Assembly: GCF_004361855.1 (NCBI RefSeq) | Contig: NZ_SNWQ01000001.1 | Location: forward strand, 682,001-746,000 | Origin: Kribbella caucasensis | GTDB taxonomy: Bacteria > Actinomycetota > Actinomycetes > Propionibacteriales > Kribbellaceae | Length of the DNA stretch: 64,000 nt | Reading direction: 5' to 3' | Shown here: piece after piece, positions 5,018 to 36,669 of the stretch | Position numbering within the stretch: the first letter of the stretch is position 1 | How the letters are laid out: every line of letters starts with the position of its first letter | Position numbers and translations under genes: made by a program | The notes under the pieces: generated by a model | Databases searched by the model: none | What the model saw: only the letters and a program-made list of their open reading frames with translations | Told to the model about the DNA's origin: nothing

Positions 5018-6613
5018 TCAGCTGTTGTTCCTCATGGCGATCTCTCGGGATGCCTCCAGGTACGACAGTGCGCCCGCGGACGCCGGGTCGTAGGCGAGCA
5101 CCGTCTGCCCATGGCTCGGGGCCTCGGAGATGCGGACCGATCGCGGTACCGCCGTCCGCAGTACGGCATCCTGGAAGTGGCCGCGGACTTCGGCAGCCAC
5201 CTCTCCGGCCAGCTTGGTGCGGGCGTCGTACATGGTGAGCAGGATCGTCGAGACGTCGAGCCCAGGGTTCAGGTGCGCCTTCACCATGTCGATGTGGCGG
5301 AGTAGTTGCGACAGGCCCTCCAGGGCGTAGTACTCGCTCTGGATCGGGACCAGGACCTCCCGCGCCGCCGTCAGGGCGTTCACGGTGAGCAGGCCCAGCG
5401 ACGGCGGGCAGTCGATGAACACGTAGTCGTACTTCTCGCCCGCGGCCTCGGTCTCGGCCAGGTGCGCGTCCAGGACGCGCTTCAGCCGGCTCTCCCGGGC
5501 CACGATGCTGACCAGTTCGATCTCGGCGCCGGCCAGGTCGATCGTCGCCGGCACCACCACGATGCCGGGGTGCTCCTCGCAGGGCTGCAGCAGCTTGCTC
5601 AGCGACTCGCCCTCGATGACCGCCTCGTAGACACCCGGGGTGCCCTCCGAGTGCTCGATGCCGAGAGCGGTCGAGGCGTTGCCCTGGGGGTCGAGGTCGA
5701 TCACCAGGATCCGGGCGCCGTACAGGGCGAGGCCGGCGGCGACGTTGACGGTGGTGGTGGTCTTGCCGACGCCGCCCTTCTGGTTGGCGACAACGAAGAC
5801 CCGGGTCTCAGCGGGCAGCGGGAACTCGCGGCCCATCGTGCGTCCTTCATTCACCAGCAGGGTCCGTTCGGTGGCGGCGGCGATCGGAGTTTCCAGAAGT
5901 CGTCGTTGAAGCTCGTCCGAAGTGGCCCGCGCGGCAATCTGTGCGGCAGTCATGGCGCCCATTCCAAGAGGTGCGGGACTTGGCCCGAAGAGGATGTCGG
6001 TCGGGGTCGGAGCTGGGGTTGGGGCGGGGCTTGAAGCAGGAGTTCGAGCGGCTGGAGCAAGAGCTGGGGGGACAGCTGGAGGGAGAGCTGGTGCGAATCC
6101 GCCCCCAGGTTCATCCACAGGGGTCTGTGGATGAATTCCAGCCTGCGGAGGCGTCTCGCGGGGGTGGTCATCCACAGGAGGTGGGGACTCGGGGTACTGC
6201 TCTTCAGTGTCGGGCTCAGTATCCAGCAAGGGGCCCGTTTCACGTGAAACCGTCGACGTCTGAGCACCACTTGCGGCCCCTGAAGTGAGGCCGACCGCGG
6301 CCGCTCGAAGACCCGAGGAGTCGAAGTTCACGTCGCTGCCGTTGATCGCGGGCGCCTCCGGTGAAGGTAGAGGCGCCGATACCGGCGATGATGCAGGGGC
6401 TACGAACGGCGAAGTAGCCGAGGACGGCTTGGCGGCTGAAGTGGTGGTTGAAGTGGTATCTGCGGTGGGAACTTGGGAGGCAGTTGAGGAGGGAGCGTCC
6501 GACTCGGGCGCGACCAAAGTGATCGAGTTCTGACCGCCGGTGGGCCAGCCGATGCCTTGGTTCGCCCCGGGTTCACCGGTGCTTTTCTCCGGCCATCCGA
6601 GGGCACGACTCAC
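5018..6613 (-). CDS. parA: Chromosome partitioning ATPase ParA with long N-terminal extension
   Basis: The C-terminal 270 residues are a typical ParA/Soj ATPase: VANQKGGVGKTTT (deviant Walker A, about residues 276-288), VIDLDPQGNAST and DYVFIDCPPSLGLLT. It would drive movement of ParB-parS complexes. The GTG at 6613 gives 531 residues and is preceded by GGGAGGTGATC at good distance; this Shine-Dalgarno overlaps the rsmG stop. About 260 N-terminal residues are Pro/Ala/Ser/Thr-rich and predicted disordered. They use visibly fewer GC-ending codons than the ATPase and contain a parS site and three DnaA-box-like sequences. A shorter protein from an ATG at 5962 or 5953 is possible, but neither has a clear ribosome site. 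Confidence 0.9.
   Translation of the reverse strand: MSRALGWPEKSTGEPGANQGIGWPTGGQNSITLVAPESDAPSSTASQVPTADTTSTTTSAAKPSSATSPFVAPASSPVSAPLPSPEAPAINGSDVNFDSSGLRAAAVGLTSGAASGAQTSTVSRETGPLLDTEPDTEEQYPESPPPVDDHPRETPPQAGIHPQTPVDEPGGGFAPALPPAVPPALAPAARTPASSPAPTPAPTPTDILFGPSPAPLGMGAMTAAQIAARATSDELQRRLLETPIAAATERTLLVNEGRTMGREFPLPAETRVFVVANQKGGVGKTTTTVNVAAGLALYGARILVIDLDPQGNASTALGIEHSEGTPGVYEAVIEGESLSKLLQPCEEHPGIVVVPATIDLAGAEIELVSIVARESRLKRVLDAHLAETEAAGEKYDYVFIDCPPSLGLLTVNALTAAREVLVPIQSEYYALEGLSQLLRHIDMVKAHLNPGLDVSTILLTMYDARTKLAGEVAAEVRGHFQDAVLRTAVPRSVRISEAPSHGQTVLAYDPASAGALSYLEASREIAMRNNS
6111..6176. other. Three DnaA-box-like sequences inside the parA extension
   Basis: TCATCCACA occurs at 6111-6119 and 6168-6176, and its complement TGTGGATGA at 6126-6134. 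The first two form a palindrome around GGGGTC. They match the relaxed actinobacterial box YYRTCCACA. A parS site follows 60 bp away. Confidence 0.5.
6236..6251. other. parS site 4 (inside parA)
   Basis: CGTTTCACGTGAAACC has the complete 14-bp TTTCACGTGAAA core region. It lies within the parA reading frame and is translated as VSRET on the minus strand. Confidence 0.9.
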
Positions 6614-9992: not shown

Positions 9993-10651
9993 TGGAATGA
10001 CTCCGGTTACTCGAGATCAGAGATGTCGACAAATCCACTGGTAGATCTGCCGCTGCTGCAGGTCCTGCACGCCGCCCGAGAAACCAGGCCGGCCAAACCG
10101 CCGGCAAACAAGGTCTCGCCTGGAGCGCAGCACGAAACGGCCGGCTCAACGCCGACCGATCCACGGTACGTGGCCGCCTGTGGACAGGTCAAACCGACCG
10201 TCCCCATAGTTTTCCACAGGTCTGTGGAAAATCCACGCGCCGCACGGATCGTCCGGTTCTGATCACGCACAGCCGACAACCGCTACCAACGGCGACTGCC
10301 CAACCACGACTACGCTCCGGCGTCTACCCGACACGCCGGAGGTTGCCCCCAATTTGGCATCCATAGCCTGTGGATGACGGCTTGAAGCGCCCTGCCCGGA
10401 CTTGTTAGCGTCAGCCCCTCACACCACAGGTTCCACCCCCCGCAACCGGTAACCAACCTGCTCCACGCGTCGTTCACAACTGTGGACAACGATGTGGACA
10501 ATGAGGAGAACCGGCTGAGGAGACCGGCGATTGCGATGTTCGGCCGAGCGGCCGGACGGGCAACGGCCGGGGGCCGGGACGAGAGGTCGCGCTGAACTGG
10601 GGGAACCCGGCCGGCACCGGCCACCGCAGCGAAGGATTCGGGGAGCAACGC
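9993..10651. promoter_or_regulatory. rpmH-dnaA spacer with DnaA boxes
   Basis: This 659-bp non-coding stretch carries the divergent promoters of rpmH and dnaA. DnaA-box-like sequences occur at 10179-10187 (TGTGGACAG), 10210-10218 (TTTTCCACA), 10223-10231 (TGTGGAAAA), 10369-10377 (TGTGGATGA), 10481-10489 and 10493-10501. The last two are perfect TGTGGACAA boxes 12 bp apart, 150 bp before dnaA. They suit autoregulation of dnaA by its own product. No gene is supported here. Confidence 0.8.
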
Positions 10652-12760
10652 GTGGTCGAGGATCAGTCCGGTAATGCGGACTTCAGAGCGGACATCGATA
10701 CCGAGGCCACGGGCGGGGACACACCACCGGTCGGCATCTTCGGCGAAACGCAGAACGAAGCGACCAACGGCTGGCCCGGTGAAGCCGCCGACAGCCAACT
10801 TGGCGAAGCAAACGGTGGGCGACTCGGGGATGCGGGCGGCCTTCTGGGCGGCCCGAGCATCGGCGACAGCAACGGACCGAACAGCGCGGTCCAGACCAGC
10901 GGCACAGGACCGGTCGGACCGAGCAGCCGCGGTGTAGCCGACGGCGGAGCACCCGGCGGTGGTTTCGCGGGCGGGCCTGCGGCCGGCGGGAATGCCGGTG
11001 ACGGCGGGCGTGAGGTCAGGGCTCAGGTGAATGATCTGGGTGATGCGTGGGCGCGGGTGCTCGCCGGGTTGCCGCCGAATCAGCGCGCCTGGCTGACGAA
11101 CTCGCGGCCGGTGACGCTGCACGAGAGCACCGCGATCGTGGCCGTTCCCGACGACTTCACCCGGGGCCAGCTCGAGACCCGGCTCCGGCCCGATCTGGAG
11201 CGGATTCTCAGCGAGAGCTTCGGCCGCGACATCCGGATCGCGGTGACCGTCGACCCGTCCCTCGATCCCGAGCTCCGCGAACAAACCCAGCCCGCGCAAC
11301 CCGCGGTACAGGAGTCGCGGTATCAGGGTGGGACGTTGCAGCAGCCGACCCAGCAGCACCAGCCGGCTCAGCACCATCAGCCGACACAGCACATGCAGCC
11401 CTCGCAGCATCTGCAGCCGAATCGGTACCAGCAGCCGGATCACTCCGGCCGGCCGGGCGAAGCAAGCAATCCACACCAGCCCGCCCAAGGTCAGCCACTG
11501 CAGGCTGAGGGGTCATTCCAGCCAACGCTCCAGTCCTCGCTGACCGCGGCGCCCGACCTGCCCGTTCACCGGATGGACCAGCCCATCGGCCAGCCGATCA
11601 ACCAGCAGCCGAACCAGCCCATGAACCAGCCACTGAACCAGCAGCACGGGCAGCCGCTCGGCTCGGTCGCGCCGCCGCCGAACGGTTCGGCCCCGATCCA
11701 GCAGGCCACTCAGGCCCAGGGCGAGGCCCGGCTGAACCCGAAGTACACCTTCGAGACCTTCGTCATCGGCAGCTCCAACCGGTTCGCGCACGCCGCGGCT
11801 GTCGCCGTCGCCGAGGCACCGGGCAAGGCCTACAACCCGCAGCTGATCTACGGCGACTCCGGTCTCGGCAAGACCCATCTGCTGCACGCGATCGGGCACT
11901 ACGTCCGCAGCCTCTACACCGGGGCCCGGGTCCGGTACGTCTCGAGCGAAGAGTTCACCAACGACTTCATCAACGCGATCCGCGATGACAAGGCATCCCA
12001 GTTCCAGCGCCGATACCGCGACGTCGATGTGCTGCTGATCGACGACATCCAGTTCCTCGAGGGCAAGATCCAGACCCAGGAGGAGTTCTTCCACACCTTC
12101 AACACGCTGCACAACGCGAACAAGCAGATCGTGATCAGCTCCGACCGGGCGCCGAAACGCCTGGAGGCACTGGAGGATCGGCTGCGCAACCGGTTCGAGT
12201 GGGGGCTGATCACCGACATCCAGCCGCCCGACCTGGAGACCCGGATCGCGATCCTGCGGAAGAAGGCGGCCACCGAGCGGCTGACCGCGCCGCCGGAGGT
12301 GCTGGAGTTCATCGCGTCGAAGGTGCAGACCAACATCCGCGAGCTCGAGGGCGCCCTGATCCGGGTCACCGCGTTCGCCAGCCTGAACCGGCAGCCGGTC
12401 GATCTGAGCCTGGCCGAGATCGTGCTGAAGGACCTGATTCCTGAAGGCAGCAAGCCAGAGGTGACGGCCAGCATGATCATGGGCCAGACCGCCTCGTACT
12501 TCGGCCTGTCGATCGATGACCTCTGTGGTTCGAGCCGGAGCCGGGTGCTGGTGACGGCCCGGCAGATCGCGATGTACCTGTGCCGGGAGCTGACTGATCT
12601 GTCCCTGCCGAAGATCGGCCAGCAGTTCGGCGGCCGCGACCACACGACGGTGATGCACGCCGAGCGGAAGATCCGCCAGCTGATGTCCGAGCGGCGCAGC
12701 GTCTTCAACCAGGTGACCGAACTGACCAACAGGATCAAGCATCAGGCCAAGCAGCAATGA
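10652..12760 (+). CDS. dnaA: Chromosomal replication initiator protein DnaA
   Basis: DnaA binds DnaA boxes and opens oriC. From the GTG at 10652, with GGGGAG well placed upstream, it has 702 residues, long for the family. Residues 1-125 are a Gly/Ala-rich extension. Domain I begins at about 127 ([20 protein letters not shown]). A Gln/Pro/His-rich domain II linker spans about 210-360. Domain III has Walker [10 protein letters not shown] at 401-409 and Walker B LLIDDIQF at 461-468. Domain IV carries [14 protein letters not shown] from 661, which reads the DnaA box. A GTG at 11027 just before domain I could give a conventional 577-residue form. Confidence 0.97.
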
Positions 12761-13280
12761 CCCCGGTGACCGTCTCGCCGAGCTCGGAAGCCGAGTGCTA
12801 CGAAGCGGTCACCGGAACCACACAGGTTGGGGATACTCCTGTGGAAAACTGTGGGTATCCCGGTGGACATCCACGCCTTCGTTGTGGATTCGCTGTGGGG
12901 ACAGCCGGCGTCGTCCTCAGCCGTCCCCAGGCAAGCCCGATTTCGTCCACACCCAACACACAGGGTGATTCGCGCTCTGACCTGCGAATACGTCGCTTCT
13001 CCACAGTTTCCACAGTTGCGAAGAACCCTATGGAATCTGTAACTAGGTCAAAGTCCACAAATGGTTCATCCGGCCCGATCTGGGGAAAACTCGCAAATCC
13101 GGCCCGGGCTGGGCAGTGTCGGCGCGACCTGTCAGGCTGTTCCTGCGACACCCCAAGGCCCACTCGTGGACTTCGGCGGACGACCCGCCCGAAGCGCCGC
13201 GTCAAGCCCGGTTGGCGCACATCACATCTGTCCGTGGCAGGATCTGCCTGGCACACAGCCGAATCAGGAGGCACCCAGCG
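12761..13280 (+). other. oriC: Origin of replication (oriC), dnaA-dnaN spacer
   Basis: The 520-bp spacer between dnaA and dnaN carries clustered, mostly imperfect DnaA boxes: TGTGGAAAA (12840-12848), TGTGGATTC (12883-12891), TCGTCCACA (12943-12951), TTCTCCACA (12997-13005), GTTTCCACA (13006-13014) and AAGTCCACA (13051-13059). A relatively A/T-rich stretch lies at about 13015-13075. The position matches mapped origins of other actinobacteria. Transcription and gene orientation also switch around here. Exact unwinding sites cannot be read off. Confidence 0.85.
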
Positions 13281-28414: not shown

Positions 28415-28948
28415 GTGGTGGAGATCATTACTGATCGGCTGGTTCTGCGGGACTGGCGGGAGTCCGACCTGGCGCCGTGGGCAGCGATGAACGCCGACCC
28501 GGAGGTCCGGGAGTATCTCGGGCCGTTGCTCACCGCCGAGGAGGCGGCGGCCTCGGTGCGCAGCTTCCAGGACGATCTGGACCGCAACGGCTTCGGGTTC
28601 TGGGCGGTGGAGGTTCGCCACACGGGCGAATTCGTCGGGTTCGCCGGCCTGGACACGGTGGACGAGGGGATGCCGTTCACAGGCGTGGAGGCTGGTTGGC
28701 GGCTGGCCCGGTCGGCATGGGGGCACGGGTACGCCACGGAGGCGGCGCTCGCCGTACTGCGGTACGGCTTCGACACGCACCGGATGCCTGAGATCCTGGC
28801 GATCACCACGACGACGAACCTGCGCTCGCAGGCTGTGATGCAGCGGATCGGCATGACCACCGACCCGGCCGAGGACTTCGACGACCCAGAGGTAGCAGTG
28901 GGTCCACTGAGGCGATGCGTCCTTTATCGCAAGCCGATGACAGCCTGA
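28415..28948 (+). CDS. GNAT family N-acetyltransferase (RimJ/RimL type)
   Basis: The 177-residue enzyme is predicted to use acetyl-CoA. Sequence pieces TDRLVLRDWRESDLAPWAAMNADPEVREYLGP at the start and LARSAWGHGYATEAALAVLRYGFD (the acetyl-CoA pyrophosphate loop Q/RxxGxG/A is WGHGYATEA) are those of the RimJ-like group. The C-terminal NLRSQAVMQRIGM is also typical. Substrate unknown; these enzymes acetylate ribosomal proteins, antibiotics or amino acids. It begins at one of two adjacent GTG codons (28415 or 28418). Confidence 0.88.
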   Translation: MVEIITDRLVLRDWRESDLAPWAAMNADPEVREYLGPLLTAEEAAASVRSFQDDLDRNGFGFWAVEVRHTGEFVGFAGLDTVDEGMPFTGVEAGWRLARSAWGHGYATEAALAVLRYGFDTHRMPEILAITTTTNLRSQAVMQRIGMTTDPAEDFDDPEVAVGPLRRCVLYRKPMTA

Positions 28949-28966
28949 TCCAGTCTTGACCTCTGG

Positions 28967-29344
28967 TTACGCCTGTGAGGGGAGCCAGCACAGGCAGAAC
29001 GGATGGCCGGCGGGATCGGCGTAGACCCGGAAGCCTGACGGTACGGCGGAGTCGTCGGCCGCCTTCAACAATCGCCCGCCCAGTTCCAGCACCCGCTCAT
29101 GCCCGGCTTCGAGATCCTCGAGGTAGAAATCGAGGTGGATCTGCTGCGGCGAAGTGTCGTCGGGCCACCTGGGCGGGACGTGATTCGGCGCCAGCTGGAC
29201 TCCGAGCTGCCAGTCCCCATCGACCCAGATGTTGTGCCATCGCTGGTTCGCCTCGACGGTGCCGCCCAGCAGCCCGGCCCAGAACGCGCTCTCCGCGTGG
29301 AGATCCGCCGCCTCGAGAACGATCATCCGATGCTTGATCTTCAC
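28967..29344 (-). CDS. VOC (glyoxalase/bleomycin-resistance fold) protein
   Basis: The 125-residue protein has the vicinal-oxygen-chelate fold: KIKHRMIVLEAADLHAESAFWAGLLGG, then QIHLDFYLEDLEAGHERVLELGGRLL and a final VYADPAGHPFCLCWL. Metal-binding candidates are His in DTSPQQIHLDF and residues near the C-terminus. Substrate unknown. The GTG at 29344 with AGGGGT upstream is preferred over a longer form. Confidence 0.82.
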   Translation of the reverse strand: MKIKHRMIVLEAADLHAESAFWAGLLGGTVEANQRWHNIWVDGDWQLGVQLAPNHVPPRWPDDTSPQQIHLDFYLEDLEAGHERVLELGGRLLKAADDSAVPSGFRVYADPAGHPFCLCWLPSQA

Positions 29345-29700
29345 AGCTCGTACCCCTCTGATCGGCAACCAGCATGATGAGAACCCGGATCAGGGGACCA
29401 CGAAACTGAAGGTCTCATCAACAGTTGCCGCTCCGACGCCGCCAAGTCAGCGCCGCGGTGAGGTTGCTGGGGGCAACTAGGTTGTTGCCTTGGGCTACTG
29501 AAAAGTCGTGACAGTTCGGGTACGGATTGTCACGGGGTGTGCACTGTTTGTTTGCGATGTCCGGAACTCACTAGCGAGCGGCGGAACTGTCAGCCGATCG
29601 TCTGATGAGGAAGTTTTCGGCGACGTTCCTTTGACGCTGTGCTCACGCGGGGTCCGGTCTGGCGCGCGTGAAACCGGTCGACGACGGAGGATCCGGACAC
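29345..29700. other. Intergenic stretch, no gene seen
   Basis: This 356-bp divergent region has lower GC than its neighbours. The only structure I see is GTTGC/GCAAC (29463-29477), followed by a second GTTGTTGCC. It should carry promoters for the VOC and VanZ genes. Confidence 0.4.
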
Positions 29701-30345
29701 GTGCTCGAGACCTATCGCGGCATCCCGCACCTGCTGGACACTTGGCTCGTTCTCACCGGGATGGCGATCCCGATCGCGGTGTCGGCCGCCCGGCGTCGCG
29801 GTGACGGAGTGGTGCCACGGCTCGCCTCCGTACTGATGCCGGCCGCGTTCGCACTCGTACTGGCGGCGACCCTCAGCCCGACCGCGAACCGGCTGAACGG
29901 CCTCGGCAGCTGCGGCACCCACCTGGCCACGACGGGTGGCCTGACGTCGGTGCAGGGGCTGCTGAACGTGCTGCTGTTCGTGCCCGTCGCCGGGATGCTC
30001 ACGCTGGCCTGTGGGCGGCCGGCGGACGGGATCGCAACCGGGATCGGCTTGTCGGCCGCGGTGGAGGCGATCCAGGCGTTGGTACCGCAACTCGGCCGGT
30101 CGTGTCAGCTGCACGACCTGATCGCGAACACGGCCGGAGCGTTCGCGGGCGTCGGGCTGGCCGCGGGCGTCCAGGCGATCATCAGTCGAGGGCGGGTGCT
30201 CACCGTCCCGGTGTACGTCGTGGACCATGGCGCGCTGCTGGCGACACGAGGGCGGCCGGCCGCTCGGCATCGACGGCAGGAGCTGTCTCCAGTCCCGGTC
30301 ACCGCCCGGACGAACCCACTCCACCCCATGGCACGGCTGCGCTGA
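29701..30345 (+). CDS. VanZ-like membrane protein
   Basis: The 214-residue protein has four to five helices and the VanZ-like pattern: a tail-end helix pair with LLNVLLFVPVAGMLTLACGR and GIGLSAAVEAIQALVPQLGRSCQLHDLIANTAGAFAGVGLAAG. VanZ family proteins include a teicoplanin-resistance accessory protein, but most members are uncharacterised and resistance should not be inferred. The GTG at 29701 has GGAGGA nine bases upstream; a GTG at 29668 is the alternative. A polar tail of about 45 residues follows the last helix. Confidence 0.78.
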   Translation: MLETYRGIPHLLDTWLVLTGMAIPIAVSAARRRGDGVVPRLASVLMPAAFALVLAATLSPTANRLNGLGSCGTHLATTGGLTSVQGLLNVLLFVPVAGMLTLACGRPADGIATGIGLSAAVEAIQALVPQLGRSCQLHDLIANTAGAFAGVGLAAGVQAIISRGRVLTVPVYVVDHGALLATRGRPAARHRRQELSPVPVTARTNPLHPMARLR

Positions 30346-30462
30346 GTCCCGCCGTACGCCGGTGTGCGCGGCTGGGGTCGGCTGTTCTCCGGTACATGCG
30401 TGGGTGCCGATTGACGCCGTCTGGCGGGGTGACGGTGGATGATGACCACGGAGAGTGGGAGG

Positions 30463-30524
30463 TTATCCACAGCTTGTGGACGAAATCTGGGGATAGCCGG
30501 GTCATAGCGCTGGAGTTATCCACA
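30463..30524. other. Cluster of consensus DnaA boxes outside oriC
   Basis: TTATCCACA occurs at 30463-30471 and 30516-30524, both exact matches to the classic 9-mer. TGTGGACGA at 30475-30483 is a reverse-oriented relaxed box. They fill the 180-bp gap between the VanZ and pentapeptide-repeat genes, 17.5 kb from oriC. Confidence 0.6.
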
Positions 30525-30525
30525 G

Positions 30526-31137
30526 TCAGGGGCGAACCTCCAGGCCGAGGGACTGGGTGATGGTCATCGCCTGAGGGAGGTCGACGATGGCGCCTTTGAG
30601 GGCGACTGTCAGTGGATCGACGGTGGACAGGTCCGAGCCGCGGAGGTCGCAGCCGGACAGATCGGCCTGATGGAGGTAGGCCCCGGACAGGTCGACGTTG
30701 CGGAACACGGCTTTCGAGGCGCGGAGGCCCGTGAGGTCGGCCTCACGGAGCTTCACACCGGTGAACTCGGTACCGCGCAGGTCCGCCCCGGGCAGGCCGG
30801 TGAAGGACCAGTCGCCGCCGTCGACCTTCATCAGGTTGTACGTGCAGTCGTCGAACAGGCTGCCCATGAGCTTGCAGCGGGTGAAAGCCGAGTCGAAGAA
30901 CGAGCAGCGGACGAATGTGCAGTTCACGAACGCGGCGTCGGTGTGGACGGATGCGTTGAACCGGACGCCGCGGAAGGTGCACTCCTCGAACACGCCGCCC
31001 TGGTTGGTCACCTCGGTCAGGTCGGAATCGATGAACAGCACCTTGGTGAAGGTCTGCCCGGACGGGTCGGCATCCTCCCAGTCGCGGATGGTGGATTCGG
31101 TCTTGGGCGCGGGACGCCCGTGCAGCCGGTCGGCCAC
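30526..31137 (-). CDS. Pentapeptide repeat protein
   Basis: The 203-residue protein is built of A(D/N)LxX-like five-residue repeats that form a right-handed beta helix. Examples are GVFEECTFRGVRFNAS, AAFVNCTFVRCSFFDSAFTRCKLMGSLFDDCTY, GADLRGTEFTGVKLREADLTGLRASKAVFRNVDLSGAYLHQADLSGCDLRGSDL. Some relatives (MfpA, Qnr) mimic DNA and bind gyrase, but this family is broad. The GTG at 31137 has AAGGAG five bases upstream. Confidence 0.88.
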   Translation of the reverse strand: MADRLHGRPAPKTESTIRDWEDADPSGQTFTKVLFIDSDLTEVTNQGGVFEECTFRGVRFNASVHTDAAFVNCTFVRCSFFDSAFTRCKLMGSLFDDCTYNLMKVDGGDWSFTGLPGADLRGTEFTGVKLREADLTGLRASKAVFRNVDLSGAYLHQADLSGCDLRGSDLSTVDPLTVALKGAIVDLPQAMTITQSLGLEVRP

Positions 31138-31259
31138 GGCACTCCTTCCCTGGAGCGGCCCGGAGCACCATCGTGCGGCGGTCCGGCCTCCTGTCTCACC
31201 CAGCATTGTGACGACCCCGACGGACAAAGTTCAGGGGATCGACAACGACAGCGGGCAAG

Positions 31260-32174
31260 ATGGGCCAGGTGACCGGATCAGAACGGGTGATGGTGTTCGG
31301 CGCCGGCGGGTTCCTCGGTGCCCGGATCTGCGCGCTGCTCGCCGATCGCGGGATCGAGCACCGCGGCATGACCCGGAGTACCGGCGATCCACATCGGCGG
31401 TTCGATCTCGCCACCGGGCACTGCTACGCACTCGACACCCAGCTCGGCCTGTACAAGCCGACCGTGATCATCAACGCGGCCGCTGCGACCCACGGCGACA
31501 CCCTGGCGCTGACCCGGGGCAACGTGGTCGCCGTGGAGGCGCTGCTCTCGTCGATGCACCGGACGGCGAACAACGCTCGCTTCATCCAGATCGGCTCAGC
31601 CGCGGAGTACGGCGGGGCGGCGTACGGGACGAGTCAGGACGAGCAGACGGAGCTCCGGCCGGGAGCGGCGTACGGGTTCACCAAGCTGGCCGGATCCGAG
31701 CTGGTACTGCGCGCGCAGCGGAACGGGGCGGACGCCGTGGTGGTGAGGTCGTTCAACATCACCGGGCCGGGATCGCCGCCGAGTACGTTGCTCGGCCGGG
31801 TCATCCGGCTGCTCGGGACGACGGACACGCTGGAACTGGGTTCGCTGGAGGCGTGGCGGGACTACGTCGACGTCCGGGACGTCGCCGAGGCGGTGATCGC
31901 GGTGGCGACAGCCGAGGCGAAACTGCCGCCGGTGCTGAACGTCGGCTCGGGGCGCGCCGCACTCGCCCGCGACGTCGTCAACCGCCTGATCGAGCTCAGC
32001 GGGACCGAGACGAAGCTGGTCGAGGGATCCGTCCATGCGGGGCATGCGGGTTCGCCGGCGGATGCCGTTCCCTGGCAGCAGGCCGACACGACGCTGATCG
32101 AGAAGCACCTGGGTTGGTCCTGCCGGATCCCCCTTGACCAGTCGCTGCAGGACACCTGGACGGCTCGGGATTGA
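31260..32174 (+). CDS. NAD(P)-dependent epimerase/dehydratase
   Basis: This is an extended short-chain dehydrogenase of 304 residues. The nucleotide-binding motif VFGAGGFLGARI opens it. The catalytic Tyr-x3-Lys lies in AYGFTKLAGSEL, with the nearby Ser in QIGSAAEYGG. It probably modifies a nucleotide sugar; the substrate is not known. The PP2C-like gene starts directly after its stop, so the two are likely co-transcribed. A GTG nine bases into the gene is an alternative start. Confidence 0.88.
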   Translation: MGQVTGSERVMVFGAGGFLGARICALLADRGIEHRGMTRSTGDPHRRFDLATGHCYALDTQLGLYKPTVIINAAAATHGDTLALTRGNVVAVEALLSSMHRTANNARFIQIGSAAEYGGAAYGTSQDEQTELRPGAAYGFTKLAGSELVLRAQRNGADAVVVRSFNITGPGSPPSTLLGRVIRLLGTTDTLELGSLEAWRDYVDVRDVAEAVIAVATAEAKLPPVLNVGSGRAALARDVVNRLIELSGTETKLVEGSVHAGHAGSPADAVPWQQADTTLIEKHLGWSCRIPLDQSLQDTWTARD

Positions 32175-32966
32175 ATGGGCCGGGTGGAGATTCGTTCGGC
32201 TTGTTGGCCTGCGCCTGACCGTGTACCGCCCTCGGTGAATGAAGATCTGGTGCTGACCGGGCCTGACTTCGTGGTGGTGCTGGATGGGGCGACTGCGCCG
32301 GCGGGGGTCGAATCGGGGTGCCGGCATGACGTGGCGTGGTTGGTCGGGCAGCTCGGTGGGCAGCTGGCGGTGCCGCTGCTCGGGAGGTCGCGGGCGCCGC
32401 TGGCCGACATCCTCGCGGATGCGATCAGCGCGGTTTGTGCTGAGCACGCCGATACGTGTGACCTGACGAATCCGGACAGTCCGTCGTCGACCGTTTCGAT
32501 GGTTCGGGTGGGTTCGGAGGTTGTCGAACATCTGGTGCTGGCGGATTCGCCGGTCGTTCTGCGGTCGCCGGCCGGCGTGGTCTCGGTCGTGGCGGACAAC
32601 CGGATCGAGTTGTTGCCGGAGTGGACCTTCGCGGCGGTCCGGCGGTTGCGGAACCAGCCGGGCGGATTCTGGGTGGCGAGCACCGAGCCGAAGGCGGCGT
32701 ACGAGGCGGTCGCCGGTACGACGGATCGCGGCGAGGTCGAGGTGATCGCGTTGCTGACGGACGGGGCTTCCCGGTACGCCGAGCGGTACGGGCACACGTG
32801 GGAAGAGCTGGTGGATCTGCTGGAGTCCGCGGGGCCGCAGGTGTTGATCGATCGCGTGCGGGCCTACGACACCGCGGCGGATCCGGCGAGCTTCCGGGGC
32901 AAACGTCACGACGACGCGACCGCAGCCGTATGTCGGCTGACCAGCGAAGGCGCGGCGTTGGCCTAG
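32175..32966 (+). CDS. PP2C-like protein phosphatase
   Basis: The 263-residue protein resembles PPM/PP2C phosphatases: SVNEDLVLTGPDFVVVLDGATAP (metal-binding Asp in VLDGAT), SSTVSMVRVGSEVVEHLVLADSPVVL, ALLTDGASRY and GKRHDDATAAVCRL (final metal-binding Asp). It would remove phosphate from Ser/Thr. It follows the epimerase gene without a gap and converges with the first DUF4328 gene, overlapping it by four bases. Assignment to the fold is good; the target is unknown. Confidence 0.75.
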   Translation: MGRVEIRSACWPAPDRVPPSVNEDLVLTGPDFVVVLDGATAPAGVESGCRHDVAWLVGQLGGQLAVPLLGRSRAPLADILADAISAVCAEHADTCDLTNPDSPSSTVSMVRVGSEVVEHLVLADSPVVLRSPAGVVSVVADNRIELLPEWTFAAVRRLRNQPGGFWVASTEPKAAYEAVAGTTDRGEVEVIALLTDGASRYAERYGHTWEELVDLLESAGPQVLIDRVRAYDTAADPASFRGKRHDDATAAVCRLTSEGAALA

Positions 32967-34351
32967 TGAGGCGGTTGCCAGGGGGTGGCGCCGCCGGGCG
33001 GTGGGTCCTGGTCGGGTCCAGTAGTGGGGATCGGGTCGGTTGGATGGTCCGCTCGCGGTGGTTGGTGAGTCGTGGGCGGGCCGACGAGTGAGGACCCGGA
33101 TCCGTTCGGCCCCGGGTGGTTAGGCCCCGACTGACCAGGGCCCGACTGACCAGGGCCGGGGCGGGCGGTTGGGATTGTGGTTGGGCTGGTGCCGAGGGTG
33201 CCGCCGTAGCCGCCTGGGCCGTGGGGACCGGGGGCGGTGGCGGCTTGGGCGACCGAGCTGGTGGTGTTGGGGGCCAGGTGGCCGGTGGTTCCTCGGTAGG
33301 TGCCGGGGCCGTAGGTGGGGTGCGCGGTCGTGCCGCCGTACTGCTCGGGGCCGTAGGTCTGCGGGCGGGCGTTGGGGCCTGACGGATTCGTCGCGTAGGT
33401 GGGGAAACTCGGGCGGGGCGCGTACTGCGGCGGGCCGCCTGGTGGTGGACCGTCCTGTGGGCGGACGGGTGGGAGATGCGAAGGCGAGTGGTCGGGCAGG
33501 GCAGGGCCGAGGGGCGGACCGCCCACGGGAACGCGGCCGTCCTGCCAAGAGGTGACCCGGTGCATGAGCAGTGAGACCGTGATGCCGGCGACGATCAGCA
33601 GGATCGTGGCGACGGTGAAGCCGATGTTCACCGCCAGGGCGACGCGGACCATGAAGTCCTGCAGATCGTAGATGTCCACGTAGTCGCCGGCCGCGTCCGC
33701 GGCATCGGCGGCGCTGACCAGCCGGACGATCCAGGAGATGAAGCTGATCATCGCGACCGCCCCACCGCCGACCAGGATCACCCAGAACCCGGTCCATGTC
33801 CCCCACCAGCCATAGAGCAGCGTGCGGATCCGGCCGGATCGCGCGGCGCCGGGCTGGTGCGCCGGCTCGCTGGCGGTGACCACGTCTTCGACCACCTGCA
33901 GCGGATACCAGAACTGCACGATCGGACAGAACCAACCGCCGATCGCCCAGCCTTTCTCATGCCGATGCGCGCTGGGACCGGAGCTGAACCCACCCTGGTA
34001 CGCGAACGCGGACTTCAGCACCTCGGTGTTCTCCCGCGCCTGCCAGAGCCAGATCAAGAACGCGATCCCGGTCGCCAGGAACAGGTAGCCGGACAAGTCG
34101 AGCAGCGGCCCGGTGCCGGCGATCGACTGGACCCCGCGGTCGAGCTCCTCCTCCGACAGCAGGCCGTAGATGAACCGCTTGACCTCGTCGTACGACGTCC
34201 ACATGACGACGGCCTGGATCACGGCGGCCACCACAGTGAGGCCCATCAGCACGATGCTGGCGAGCGCGATCCGCCGCAGCGGCCGGTACTTCGGCTGTGC
34301 GATCGGAACCATCGGCCGAACGGGATACTGCCCCGGATACGGCTGACTCAC
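32963..34351 (-). CDS. DUF4328 membrane protein (paralogue A)
   Basis: The 462-residue membrane protein has six or so helices, with the DUF4328 signatures FLIWLWQARENTEVL and GWAIGGWFCPIVQFWYPLQVVEDVVTASEP. The C-terminal 180 residues are a disordered Gly/Pro/Tyr-rich tail with YGPEQYGGTT and GPGQSGPGQSGP repeats. Function unknown. The GTG at 34351 has GGGGAGG eight bases upstream. Two further paralogues lie at 42.7-46.1 kb. Confidence 0.8.
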   Translation of the reverse strand: MSQPYPGQYPVRPMVPIAQPKYRPLRRIALASIVLMGLTVVAAVIQAVVMWTSYDEVKRFIYGLLSEEELDRGVQSIAGTGPLLDLSGYLFLATGIAFLIWLWQARENTEVLKSAFAYQGGFSSGPSAHRHEKGWAIGGWFCPIVQFWYPLQVVEDVVTASEPAHQPGAARSGRIRTLLYGWWGTWTGFWVILVGGGAVAMISFISWIVRLVSAADAADAAGDYVDIYDLQDFMVRVALAVNIGFTVATILLIVAGITVSLLMHRVTSWQDGRVPVGGPPLGPALPDHSPSHLPPVRPQDGPPPGGPPQYAPRPSFPTYATNPSGPNARPQTYGPEQYGGTTAHPTYGPGTYRGTTGHLAPNTTSSVAQAATAPGPHGPGGYGGTLGTSPTTIPTARPGPGQSGPGQSGPNHPGPNGSGSSLVGPPTTHQPPRADHPTDPIPTTGPDQDPPPGGATPWQPPH

Positions 34352-34415
34352 GATCCTCACCTCCCCAGGCCGCCGCTACAGCTAAGTTACAGCGACCGGG
34401 GAATCACCCAACCGG

Positions 34416-34424
34416 TTATCCACA
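34416..34424. other. Single consensus DnaA box
   Basis: TTATCCACA, an exact classic 9-mer, lies in the 96-bp gap between the DUF4328 and glpD genes. On its own it may be chance, but it is the third exact copy within 4 kb. Confidence 0.35.
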
Positions 34425-34447
34425 GTGCCAAAAACCTGCAGCCGGGC

Positions 34448-35989
34448 TCAGACCGAGGCGAAGGCCGCCTGCGCCGCCGGGAGCGCAACCGCGCGATCGG
34501 CCGCCGACAGCCCGATCCGGGTCCGGCGATCCAGTACGTCGTCCTCGGTCATCGCACCCTCGTGCCGCACCGCGAACCGCAGCTCCGCCTGCGTCGTGGC
34601 CAGCCCAGGTGCGATCGGCACCAGCAGCGACGGATCCCCGGCGATCACCTCGGGCGCCTCCATCCCATACCGCTCGACGAAGCGGCCAGGAGCACGAACA
34701 GCCGCCAGTCTGACCCGATCCGCCGCCCCGACCAGCGGGATCCGATGGGTCAGACACGGCCGCCGTACCTCGACCGACGACTGACCGAGCGCCGTGTCGA
34801 GCGCGTCCTGCGCCATCCGCCGGTACGTCGTCAGCTTGCCGCCCACGATCGTCACGATCCCGTCCGCACTGGTCAGCACCGCATGCCGCCGAGAGATGTC
34901 GGCCGTCTTGTGCTCACCCGGCTGGTGCCCGGTATCGAGCAATGGCCGCAGCCCCGCATACGTCCCGAGCAGATCCGCACGGGTCAGCGGAGTACGCACC
35001 GCCGTGTTGATGGTCGCCAGCAGGAAGTCGATCTCGGCATCGGTCGCCTCCGGTACGTCGCTCACCGGCCCGGGCGCGTCCTCGTCCGTCAGCCCGACGT
35101 ACACCCGGCCCTCCGGCGCCGGAATCGCCATCACCACCCGGCGCAACTCCCCCGGCACCGGCACCGTGAGCACCGCCGACAGGCCGCCGAAGGCCGACTG
35201 CGGCAACACCAGATGCGTCCCCCGGCTCGGCCGCAACTTGATGCCCGAGGCAACCTGGTCGGCCCAGATCCCGGTCGCGTTGATCACCATCCGCGCCGCC
35301 ACGTCGATCCGCCGGCCGGAGAACTGGTCGACCACGACCGCACCCGAACCGGTCACCTGCTCGGCCGCGCAGTACGTCAGCACCCGAGCGCCGTACGACG
35401 CGGCCGTGCGCGCGATCGCGACGACCAGCCGCGCATCGTCGTACAACTGCCCGTCCCAGGTCAGGAAGCCGCCCCGCAGGCCGGACGGTCGCAGCGTCGG
35501 CGCATAGCGGAGGATCTCGGCCGAGCTGATCCGGCGCGAGTGCGGCAGGTAGTCGTCCGAGGTGTGCGCGAAGGTCCGCAGCACGTCGCCGCCCAAGAAG
35601 GCCGAGCGCAGCAACGCCGCCTGCACGAACGTTGCCTGCGGCAACCAAGGCGCGATCTGCGGGACCGGGCGGACCAGGTGCGGTGCCGTCGTCTTCATCA
35701 GGATGCCGCGCTCGACGGCGCTCTCGTACGCGATCCCGACATGCCCGGATGCCAAGTACCGCAGGCCGCCGTGCACCAGTTTCGAGCTCCACCGGCTGGT
35801 GCCGAAGGCCAGATCATGTTTCTCCACGAGGGCAACGGTGAGCCCGCGCGCGGCCGCGTCCAGCGCGACGCCGACGCCGGTGACGCCACCGCCGATCACC
35901 AGCACGTCGACCTCGCCGGTCGTGTCCAGCCAGTCCAGCTCACGGGTCCGGCGGGCCGCGTTCAGGCTGGCGTTGCCCACCGCGATCAT
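34448..35989 (-). CDS. glpD: Glycerol-3-phosphate dehydrogenase (FAD, respiratory)
   Basis: The flavoenzyme oxidises sn-glycerol 3-phosphate to dihydroxyacetone phosphate and feeds electrons to the quinone pool. The 513-residue protein has the FAD motif DVLVIGGGVTGVGVALDAAARG near residue 27, KHDLAFGTSRWSSKLVHGGLRYL, VINATGIWADQV and TIVGGKLTTYRRMAQDALD, all typical of GlpD. The ATG at 35989 overlaps the stop of the upstream TetR gene (ATGA), so the regulator and enzyme are co-translated. Confidence 0.94.
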   Translation of the reverse strand: MIAVGNASLNAARRTRELDWLDTTGEVDVLVIGGGVTGVGVALDAAARGLTVALVEKHDLAFGTSRWSSKLVHGGLRYLASGHVGIAYESAVERGILMKTTAPHLVRPVPQIAPWLPQATFVQAALLRSAFLGGDVLRTFAHTSDDYLPHSRRISSAEILRYAPTLRPSGLRGGFLTWDGQLYDDARLVVAIARTAASYGARVLTYCAAEQVTGSGAVVVDQFSGRRIDVAARMVINATGIWADQVASGIKLRPSRGTHLVLPQSAFGGLSAVLTVPVPGELRRVVMAIPAPEGRVYVGLTDEDAPGPVSDVPEATDAEIDFLLATINTAVRTPLTRADLLGTYAGLRPLLDTGHQPGEHKTADISRRHAVLTSADGIVTIVGGKLTTYRRMAQDALDTALGQSSVEVRRPCLTHRIPLVGAADRVRLAAVRAPGRFVERYGMEAPEVIAGDPSLLVPIAPGLATTQAELRFAVRHEGAMTEDDVLDRRTRIGLSAADRAVALPAAQAAFASV

Positions 35990-36669
35990 GGCGTCAGGTA
36001 CCTGGTCAGCATCGAACGCAGCTCCTCGTCCAGCCGCGGATACTCCTCGAGCGACGCCATCACCGGACCCGACACGGCGGAGGCGAGCGAGATCAGGATG
36101 ATCTGCCGGGCCAGCCAGACCGGATCGCCGGCCCGGATCGAACCGTCCGCCTGACCGGCCTTGATCCCCTCCTCGACCAGGGCGAGGTGGGCGACCGTGC
36201 TGCTCCCCCGCCGCTCCAGCAGGTACGGCGTCAGGAACTCGGGGTCGAGCTCGATGATCTTGCGCATCAGCGGGTGCACCCGGGTCCGCGCGACCACCTC
36301 GACCACACCCTCGACCAGCCGGGACCTGCCGTCGGCGGCGTCCGGCTGGAACGCGGACATCAGCGCGGTGGTCCACTCCCGCGTCATCAGCGCGGCGACC
36401 ACGGCCTGCACGTTCGGCCAGCGGCGGTAGAGGGTCGCGCGGGAGACCTCGGCATGCCGGGCGATATCGGCCATCGTCATCCGGCGCATCCCGATCGCCA
36501 GCAGCAGCTCGTACGCCGCGTCCAGGATCCGCTCCTCGCCGATCGCGTTCGCCGGCGCGGGCCGGACCGAGCCACCGGTCTCCGGACCGCTCTCGGCACC
36601 GGCCGTGCCCGGATCGGTTGCCGCGGCATCGGTCGCCAACGGATCCGCTTCGCTGCTACGCTGAGACAT
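35986..36669 (-). CDS. TetR family regulator upstream of glpD
   Basis: The 227-residue regulator has a 45-residue disordered leader. Its TetR helix-turn-helix is RILDAAYELLLAIGMRRMTMADIARHAEVSRATLYRRWPNVQAVVAAL. It is co-translated with glpD and divergent from the FAD-linked oxidase gene, so it probably controls both, perhaps in response to a lipid or glycerol derivative. The ligand is unknown. The start ATG has no clear ribosome site. Confidence 0.88.
   Translation of the reverse strand: MSQRSSEADPLATDAAATDPGTAGAESGPETGGSVRPAPANAIGEERILDAAYELLLAIGMRRMTMADIARHAEVSRATLYRRWPNVQAVVAALMTREWTTALMSAFQPDAADGRSRLVEGVVEVVARTRVHPLMRKIIELDPEFLTPYLLERRGSSTVAHLALVEEGIKAGQADGSIRAGDPVWLARQIILISLASAVSGPVMASLEEYPRLDEELRSMLTRYLTP

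What the first reader, a model, noticed from the sequence alone, without database searches (positions are those of the whole stretch)
30463..30524. Extra-origin cluster of exact DnaA boxes 17.5 kb from oriC
Two exact TTATCCACA boxes and one relaxed reverse box are packed into 62 bp of a gap between unrelated genes, with another exact box at 34416. None of the boxes in oriC itself is such a good match to this 9-mer. Such clusters elsewhere act as DnaA titration or reactivation sites (datA, DARS in E. coli; other loci in Bacillus).
Basis: partly seen in the sequence, partly recalled or inferred. Interest (0 to 1): 0.55.

Follow-up and report, generated by a model that had tools for sequence, protein, structure and literature searches.

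The report
Conserved DnaA-box cluster beside replication origin
A short stretch of DNA near the replication origin of a soil bacterium (Kribbella type) carries an ordered array of sites for the replication-starting protein DnaA, is kept in nearly all of its relatives examined, and probably helps to limit how often the chromosome starts to copy itself.

Summary
Two exact TTATCCACA boxes (30463, 30516) and a facing reverse box (30475-30483) lie in the gap between two convergent genes (VanZ-like, pentapeptide-repeat), 17.2 kb right of oriC; a degenerate reverse box (30488-30496) adds to them. About 0.015 such exact pairs are expected in the genome by chance. Conservation decides the case: 37 of 38 Kribbella-genus genomes carry the array beside the same pentapeptide gene, 18.5-43.1 kb from dnaA in the 34 where both are on one contig. 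The 38th has a different DnaA-box cluster 6.4 kb further on. All 15 invariant alignment columns lie in boxes 1, 2 and 2b. The same core (one box facing two at 12-bp pitch) recurs at two more loci on the other side of oriC, about 147-180 kb (38 of 38 genomes) and about 229-268 kb away. In other genera of the order 17 of 25 core hits lie within 2 kb of dnaA. A hairpin has no covariation support. Best reading: an origin-proximal DnaA-binding, titrating cluster like those reported in Streptomyces and Bacillus: a new member of a known kind. Polarity matches the E. coli DARS core, but its first spacing differs by 2 bp. No binding or replication data exist here.

The parts
30463..30471 (+). box 1, TTATCCACA
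   Evidence: in the 36 aligned genomes TTATCCACA in 31, TTTTCCACA in 4, CTATCCACA in 1
30475..30483 (-). box 2, TCGTCCACA, facing box 1 with 3 bp between
   Evidence: 12 bp start to start from box 1 in 36 of 36 aligned rows
30488..30496 (-). box 2b, degenerate (CTATCCCCA, two mismatches); here 13 bp after box 2, 12 bp in most relatives
   Evidence: 4 of its columns invariant in 36 genomes; strict 12/12 spacing in 32 of 36 rows, not in this genome
30516..30524 (+). box 3, TTATCCACA, directly before the stop codon of the pentapeptide gene; 53 bp after box 1
   Evidence: 51 bp after box 1 in 29 of 38 genomes, 52 in two
30346..30525 (.). gap between the two convergent genes that holds the cluster
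   Evidence: 180 bp here, only about 62 bp in several relatives
29668..30345 (+). VanZ-like gene (PF04892)
30526..31167 (-). pentapeptide-repeat gene (PF13599, PF00805); start codon uncertain
   Evidence: relative in 38 of 38 genomes
34416..34424 (+). single box TTATCCACA
   Evidence: same-strand counterpart at a similar place in 14 of 38 genomes
10652..12760 (+). dnaA
12761..13280 (.). oriC gap between dnaA and dnaN

Best explanation
The element is a DnaA-binding array outside oriC that acts as an origin-proximal DnaA sink. Shown by sequence: box 1 and box 2 face each other 3 bp apart, box 2b follows box 2 in the same direction, box 3 lies about 51 bp after box 1, and this layout is kept at one place across the genus. 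Inferred: DnaA molecules bind these boxes and touch one another. The array lies so close to oriC that it is copied soon after initiation; the number of sites then doubles, draws DnaA away from the new origins and delays re-initiation. Two further loci with the same core, about 160 and 250 kb on the other side, would add to the sink when the other fork reaches them. I put DnaA binding at about 0.9; titration (or another lowering of DnaA activity) as the main effect is less certain.
For: Same gap in 37 of 38 genomes; +18.5 to +43.1 kb from the dnaA match in 34 of 34 measurable. All 15 invariant columns in boxes 1, 2, 2b; mean majority share 0.985, 0.864, 0.880, 0.963 in boxes 1, 2, 2b, 3 against 0.746 in 33 other columns. 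Box 1 varies between TTA and TTT forms that are both found in oriC of the genus. In 694 kb around the locus, pairs of boxes with at most one mismatch and at most 53 bp apart occur at A in 33 genomes, at the displaced A of G037 and in one place in G031, nowhere else; G031, which lacks A in the gap, thus has another cluster. The same core at loci B (38 of 38) and C (26 of 38 at 35 bits or more, plus 3 by context), and near dnaA in other genera (17 of 25 hits). Clusters near oriC in B. subtilis and S. coelicolor are reported to repress untimely initiation (passages of PMC4585315, and PMC5742627).
Against: No binding or replication data. The 38 genomes are related, so they are not independent cases. 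Box 2b is a poor DnaA box, and box 3 is lost or replaced in some genomes (G003 none, G008 29 bp, G009 and G024 41 bp with another box). This genome itself departs from the common spacing (box 2b at 13 bp, box 3 at 53). Facing TCCACA/TGTGGA pairs with 0-30 bases between are hardly enriched in the genome as a whole (24 against 17 for the control). The published high-affinity actinobacterial box is TTGTCCACA. The sequence cannot tell titration from inactivation or reactivation.
Confidence: 0.6

Rival explanations
1. DARS-like element: DnaA-ADP assembles on the facing boxes, releases ADP and is recharged with ATP, so that the site promotes initiation.
For: The core polarity, one box opposed to two, equals that of E. 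coli DARS1 and DARS2 (PMC5742627 passages; boxes measured in K-12); the box II-III spacing of 12 bp is the same.
Against: Box I-II spacing is 14 bp in both E. coli DARS and 12 bp here. Cluster A lies within 18.5-43.1 kb of dnaA, whereas in E. coli it is datA that lies nearer oriC. No ADP-release data.
Confidence: 0.13
2. Bidirectional transcription terminator: boxes 1 and 2 are the arms of an RNA hairpin between two convergent genes.
For: Boxes 1 and 2 are inverted repeats with a 3-base loop between convergent genes; one strand of the element in one relative (G011, L108) folds better than its shuffles (z -3.47).
Against: Changes are not compensated: one two-sided change, as in shuffles, and position 3 of box 1 unpaired in 8 of 36. 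No terminator-like site, no Rfam family in 28500-36500. The other three folds are unremarkable (z -1.11, -0.67, -1.12). It does not explain box 3, nor the same core at B and C.
Confidence: 0.1
3. Binding sites of another protein, such as a transcription regulator, whose site resembles a pair of DnaA boxes.
For: Loci B and C lie beside regulator genes of the Lrp/AsnC and GntR families, where operators are expected, and conservation at B runs well beyond the boxes.
Against: Cluster A lies at the 3' ends of two convergent genes, not at a promoter. The same core beside two unrelated regulators and near dnaA in other genera points to one shared binder.
Confidence: 0.08

Closest known systems
DnaA-box clusters near oriC of Streptomyces coelicolor (Smulczyk-Krawczyszyn 2006; paper not held; names D78, H24, H69 recalled)
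   Same: DnaA-box clusters outside oriC but close to it in an actinobacterium; reported to repress untimely initiation (passages in PMC4585315, and PMC5742627).
   Different: Box layout and gene neighbourhood of the Streptomyces clusters could not be compared. No function is shown here.
Bacillus subtilis DnaA-box clusters (Okumura 2012; known only through the same passages)
   Same: Several clusters near oriC said to repress untimely initiation.
   Different: Layout not compared.
E. coli datA
   Same: Non-coding DnaA-box cluster downstream of genes, nearer oriC than DARS, doubled soon after initiation (PMC5742627 passages).
   Different: datA's essential boxes all point one way and need an IHF site between them; here boxes 1 and 2 face each other. 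An IHF-type site was not looked for.
E. coli DARS1 and DARS2 core
   Same: One box opposed to two; box II-III spacing 12 bp.
   Different: Box I-II spacing 14 bp against 12 here; ADP release untested.

Membership tests
Origin-proximal DnaA-box cluster (S. coelicolor / B. subtilis kind) | several DnaA boxes clustered outside oriC | tested here: met
Origin-proximal DnaA-box cluster (S. coelicolor / B. subtilis kind) | lies near oriC | tested here: met
   17.2 kb here; 18.5-43.1 kb from dnaA in 34 of 34 measurable genomes
Origin-proximal DnaA-box cluster (S. coelicolor / B. subtilis kind) | binds DnaA | not testable with these tools
   needs EMSA, SPR or ChIP
Origin-proximal DnaA-box cluster (S. 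coelicolor / B. subtilis kind) | represses untimely initiation | not testable with these tools
   needs deletion and origin/terminus ratio
DARS core | box I opposed to boxes II and III | tested here: met
DARS core | box I-II spacing as in E. coli (14 bp start to start) | tested here: not met
   12 bp in 36 of 36 aligned rows, 14 in DARS1 and DARS2
DARS core | promotes ADP release from DnaA | not testable with these tools
   biochemical assay
datA | essential boxes in one direction | tested here: not met
   boxes 1 and 2 face each other
datA | IHF site between boxes | not tested
   no consensus for an actinobacterial counterpart was at hand
Intrinsic terminator | G+C-rich hairpin followed by a run of T | tested here: not met
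   0 sites in 30200-30700
Intrinsic terminator | compensatory changes in the stem | tested here: not met

The most novel reading that the evidence does not exclude
Kribbella has a three-site DnaA control system at steady distances on both sides of oriC (about +20 to +40, -160 and -250 kb), built from one 12-bp-pitch core of one box facing two. The core acts on the nucleotide state of DnaA, as DARS does in E. coli, in a lineage for which my searches found no such site described.
Probability: 0.13. Interest if true: 0.75.

Novelty: new member of a known kind. Interest (0 to 1): 0.45.

Why it matters
If true, it gives small, defined deletion targets for asking how an actinobacterium prevents extra rounds of replication, shows which box spacings selection keeps, and offers a natural comparison with DARS and datA. 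A cluster lost from one gap and found 6 kb away in one species suggests that nearness to oriC matters more than the exact spot (inference from one case).

Tried and rejected
Hairpin or terminator: no covariation, no terminator-like site, no Rfam match; folding scores mixed. Box 0 (TTATCCGGA, 12 bp before box 1 in many genomes): not counted, because where the gap is about 62 bp it lies inside the end of the VanZ-like gene, and this genome lacks it. Pentapeptide relatives outside the genus (L035-L037: Microtetraspora, Sinosporangium, Streptosporangium) have no such box cluster beside the gene, so the cluster does not follow the gene. Models in the order (245 genomes, 38 of the genus): R1 gave weak hits in 3 of 207 other genomes (26.8-31.8 bits), R2 in 7 of 207 (30.1 bits or less), R3 in none; I did not examine the weak ones further. 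Papers: 'Kribbella' with 'DnaA boxes', 'DnaA-reactivating sequence' with 'actinobacteria', and D78 with DnaA, Streptomyces and oriC gave none; the S. coelicolor paper PMC1595370 is not held. Of PMC5742627, PMC4285127, PMC4585315, PMC3411110 and PMC7561715 I saw passages only.

Rows left out: alignment A1 holds 36 of 38 genomes (G031 and G037 left out). oriC boxes come from 37 of 38 (G017 not found). Distances: A from 34 of 37, B from 31 of 38, C from 20 of 29 rows given to the script, the rest being on other contigs. Those C rows include G000, added by hand from its locus, and G027 and G030, weak hits (28.0 and 25.3 bits) that I did not check; G030 lies at -290 kb and is left out of the range -229 to -268 kb. 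Three further R2 hits in the genus (G007, G014, G028) are at oriC, not C. Two core hits in the genus (G004:C107, G007:C2) stay unexplained.

Full report
Observation. The window is G000:C1:682001-746000 of a 9.46-Mb genome in 89 contigs. The genus is Kribbella: a named relative, Kribbella sp. VKM Ac-2568, has the pentapeptide gene at 85% identity on a contig of 578,580 bases, the length of contig C6 of G014, which genome search lists as of the same genus. The 9-mer occurs 53 times in the genome and the backward control 7 times; about 0.015 pairs as close as this are expected at that density. By itself that is suggestive, not decisive.

Surroundings. The cluster lies between the stop codons of two convergent genes, VanZ-like at 29668-30345 and pentapeptide-repeat at 30526-31167 on the other strand, so it is not at a promoter of either. 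dnaA is at 10652-12760 and the oriC gap at 12761-13280.

Conservation. The pentapeptide gene has a relative in 38 of 38 genomes of the genus; I took the DNA around each. In 36 of 38 boxes lie within 180 bp downstream of its stop codon. In G037 the array is there, but a small gene stands between it and the pentapeptide gene and box 3 is cut (by eye). G031 lacks it in the gap. A sequence model from 36 rows gives one hit of 44-95 bits in each of 37 genomes; the next best hit anywhere in the genus has 27.2 bits. The rows the model was built from match by construction; G037 was not among them. A VanZ-like end on the left was seen in 31 of 38 by a strict motif and in 4 of the other 7 by a looser one; in G008, G014 and G035 neither motif matched.

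Layout. Box 1 and box 2 are 12 bp apart, start to start, in 36 of 36 aligned rows. Box 3 is 51 bp after box 1 in 29 of 38 genomes, 52 in two (G006, G015) and 53 here. Exceptions: G009 and G024 (41 bp, other box), G008 (29), G003 (none), G031 and G037. The 15 invariant columns fall into box 1 (7), box 2 (4) and box 2b (4), none into box 3; mean majority share is 0.985, 0.864, 0.880 and 0.963 in boxes 1, 2, 2b and 3, against 0.746 in 33 non-box columns. Box 1 is TTATCCACA in 31, TTTTCCACA in 4 and CTATCCACA in 1 of 36 rows; the first two are also common in oriC of the genus (16 and 50 occurrences, 37 genomes).

Background. In 694 kb around the locus in 38 genomes, pairs of boxes with at most one mismatch and at most 53 bp apart occur at A in 33 genomes, at the displaced A of G037 and in one place in G031, nowhere else. 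The G031 place, 6.4 kb beyond its pentapeptide gene, lies between two open frames and holds an exact box, further facing boxes and a TTGTCCACA. So the one genome without A in the gap has another cluster near by. The single box at 34416 has a same-strand counterpart at a similar place in 14 of 38 genomes, as TTA, TTG, TTT or TCA followed by TCCACA.

Two more loci. Weaker hits of the model led to locus B, beside an Lrp/AsnC-family gene and a Cys/Met-metabolism enzyme gene, and locus C, in front of a GntR-family gene with a subtilase gene beyond (families). A model of B hits 38 of 38 genomes of the genus and 0 of 207 others of the order; B lies at -147 to -180 kb in 31 genomes. A model of C gives 35 bits or more in 26 of 38; G000 by gene context and G009 and G024 by a motif of the GntR protein beside a core hit add three. 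C lies at -229 to -268 kb in 19 of 20 rows measured; the 20th, G030, is a weak unchecked hit at -290 kb. In G000 the C locus keeps four boxes but with other spacings. Distances are from the edge of the dnaA match, which in many genomes starts inside the gene, so they are good to about 1 kb.

One core. In A, B and C a box is followed by two opposed boxes at 12 and 24 bp. I wrote a pattern for this from A, B and C, so hits there are by construction; what informs is how few others there are and where they lie. In 245 genomes of the order it gives 91 hits in the 38 genomes of the genus: 33 at A, 37 at B, 17 at C, 4 elsewhere, of which two are C by context. The backward control gave 1 hit in all. 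Outside the genus 23 of 207 genomes have 25 hits; 17 lie within 2 kb of the dnaA match. Of these 16 lie on the upstream side: 9 clear of the longest dnaA reading frame and 7 overlapping its first part, where the start codon is uncertain; rpmH was seen beyond 14 of the 16. The 17th is 0.8 kb past the match. The other 8 are far away or on other contigs. The core thus often stands where DnaA is expected to act. The strict core is met in 32 of 36 rows of A, not in G000 itself, where box 2b is 1 bp further. Facing pairs of TCCACA with 0-30 bases between are hardly enriched in this genome (24 against 17), but of the ten with at most 7 bases between, a cut chosen after seeing the list, six lie within 250 kb of dnaA (binomial P 6e-6, region taken as 534 kb though part of its right side is on an unknown contig).

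Mechanism. Binding by DnaA is inferred from sequence. A site this close to oriC is copied soon after initiation, as is datA in E. coli, and more sites then compete for DnaA. Passages of PMC4585315 and PMC5742627 say that clusters near oriC in S. coelicolor and B. subtilis repress untimely initiation. I therefore favour titration. The polarity equals that of the DARS core (PMC5742627); measured in E. coli K-12 the DARS1 and DARS2 boxes are +, -, - at 14 and 12 bp, here 12 and 12. On the first spacing the membership test fails, so I do not call it a DARS; a DARS-like action is not excluded.

Hairpin. Boxes 1 and 2 could pair as RNA, but changes are not compensated (one two-sided change, no more than in shuffles; position 3 unpaired in 8 of 36), no terminator-like site or RNA family is found, and folding is unremarkable for both strands of the window (z -1.11, -0.67) and one strand of the relative G011 (-1.12), though strong for its other strand (-3.47).

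Limits. The published high-affinity box of M. tuberculosis and S. coelicolor is TTGTCCACA (PMC4285127), so the affinity of TTATCCACA for Kribbella DnaA is unknown. The 38 genomes share ancestry. Nothing here measures binding or replication.

Verdict. A real and conserved DnaA-box cluster, a new member of a known kind, with a regular layout shared by three loci. Its function remains to be tested.

Noticed in passing
window 6111-6176: Three TCATCCACA boxes (+, -, +) inside the N-terminal extension of the parA reading frame. The same 0/15/57 spacing was seen in G003, G019 and G031, and with TTATCCACA first in G028 and G030, among 14 left flanks looked at.
   Followed up: partly
window 6237-6250: Perfect palindrome GTTTCACGTGAAAC, which looks like parS (recalled), 61 bp from those boxes.
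   Followed up: no
window 10210-10231 and 10481-10501: DnaA boxes upstream of dnaA: a facing TTTTCCACA pair and two TTGTCCACA 12 bp apart.
   Followed up: no
Genome-wide (G000): TTATCCACA is 53 times in the genome against 7 for the backward control; several copies lie near contig ends (C6, C12, C21, C68), which may be repeats.
   Followed up: no
L196:14211-15411: In this genome the Cys/Met-metabolism gene beside locus B appears as two neighbouring reading frames: a frameshift or an assembly error.
   Followed up: no
G037, beside cluster A: An inserted small reading frame separates the cluster from the pentapeptide gene and breaks box 3.
   Followed up: no
G204:C1:2099742-2099769: A second copy of the facing core about 9 kb from dnaA in another genus: perhaps an origin-side cluster there too.
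   Followed up: no
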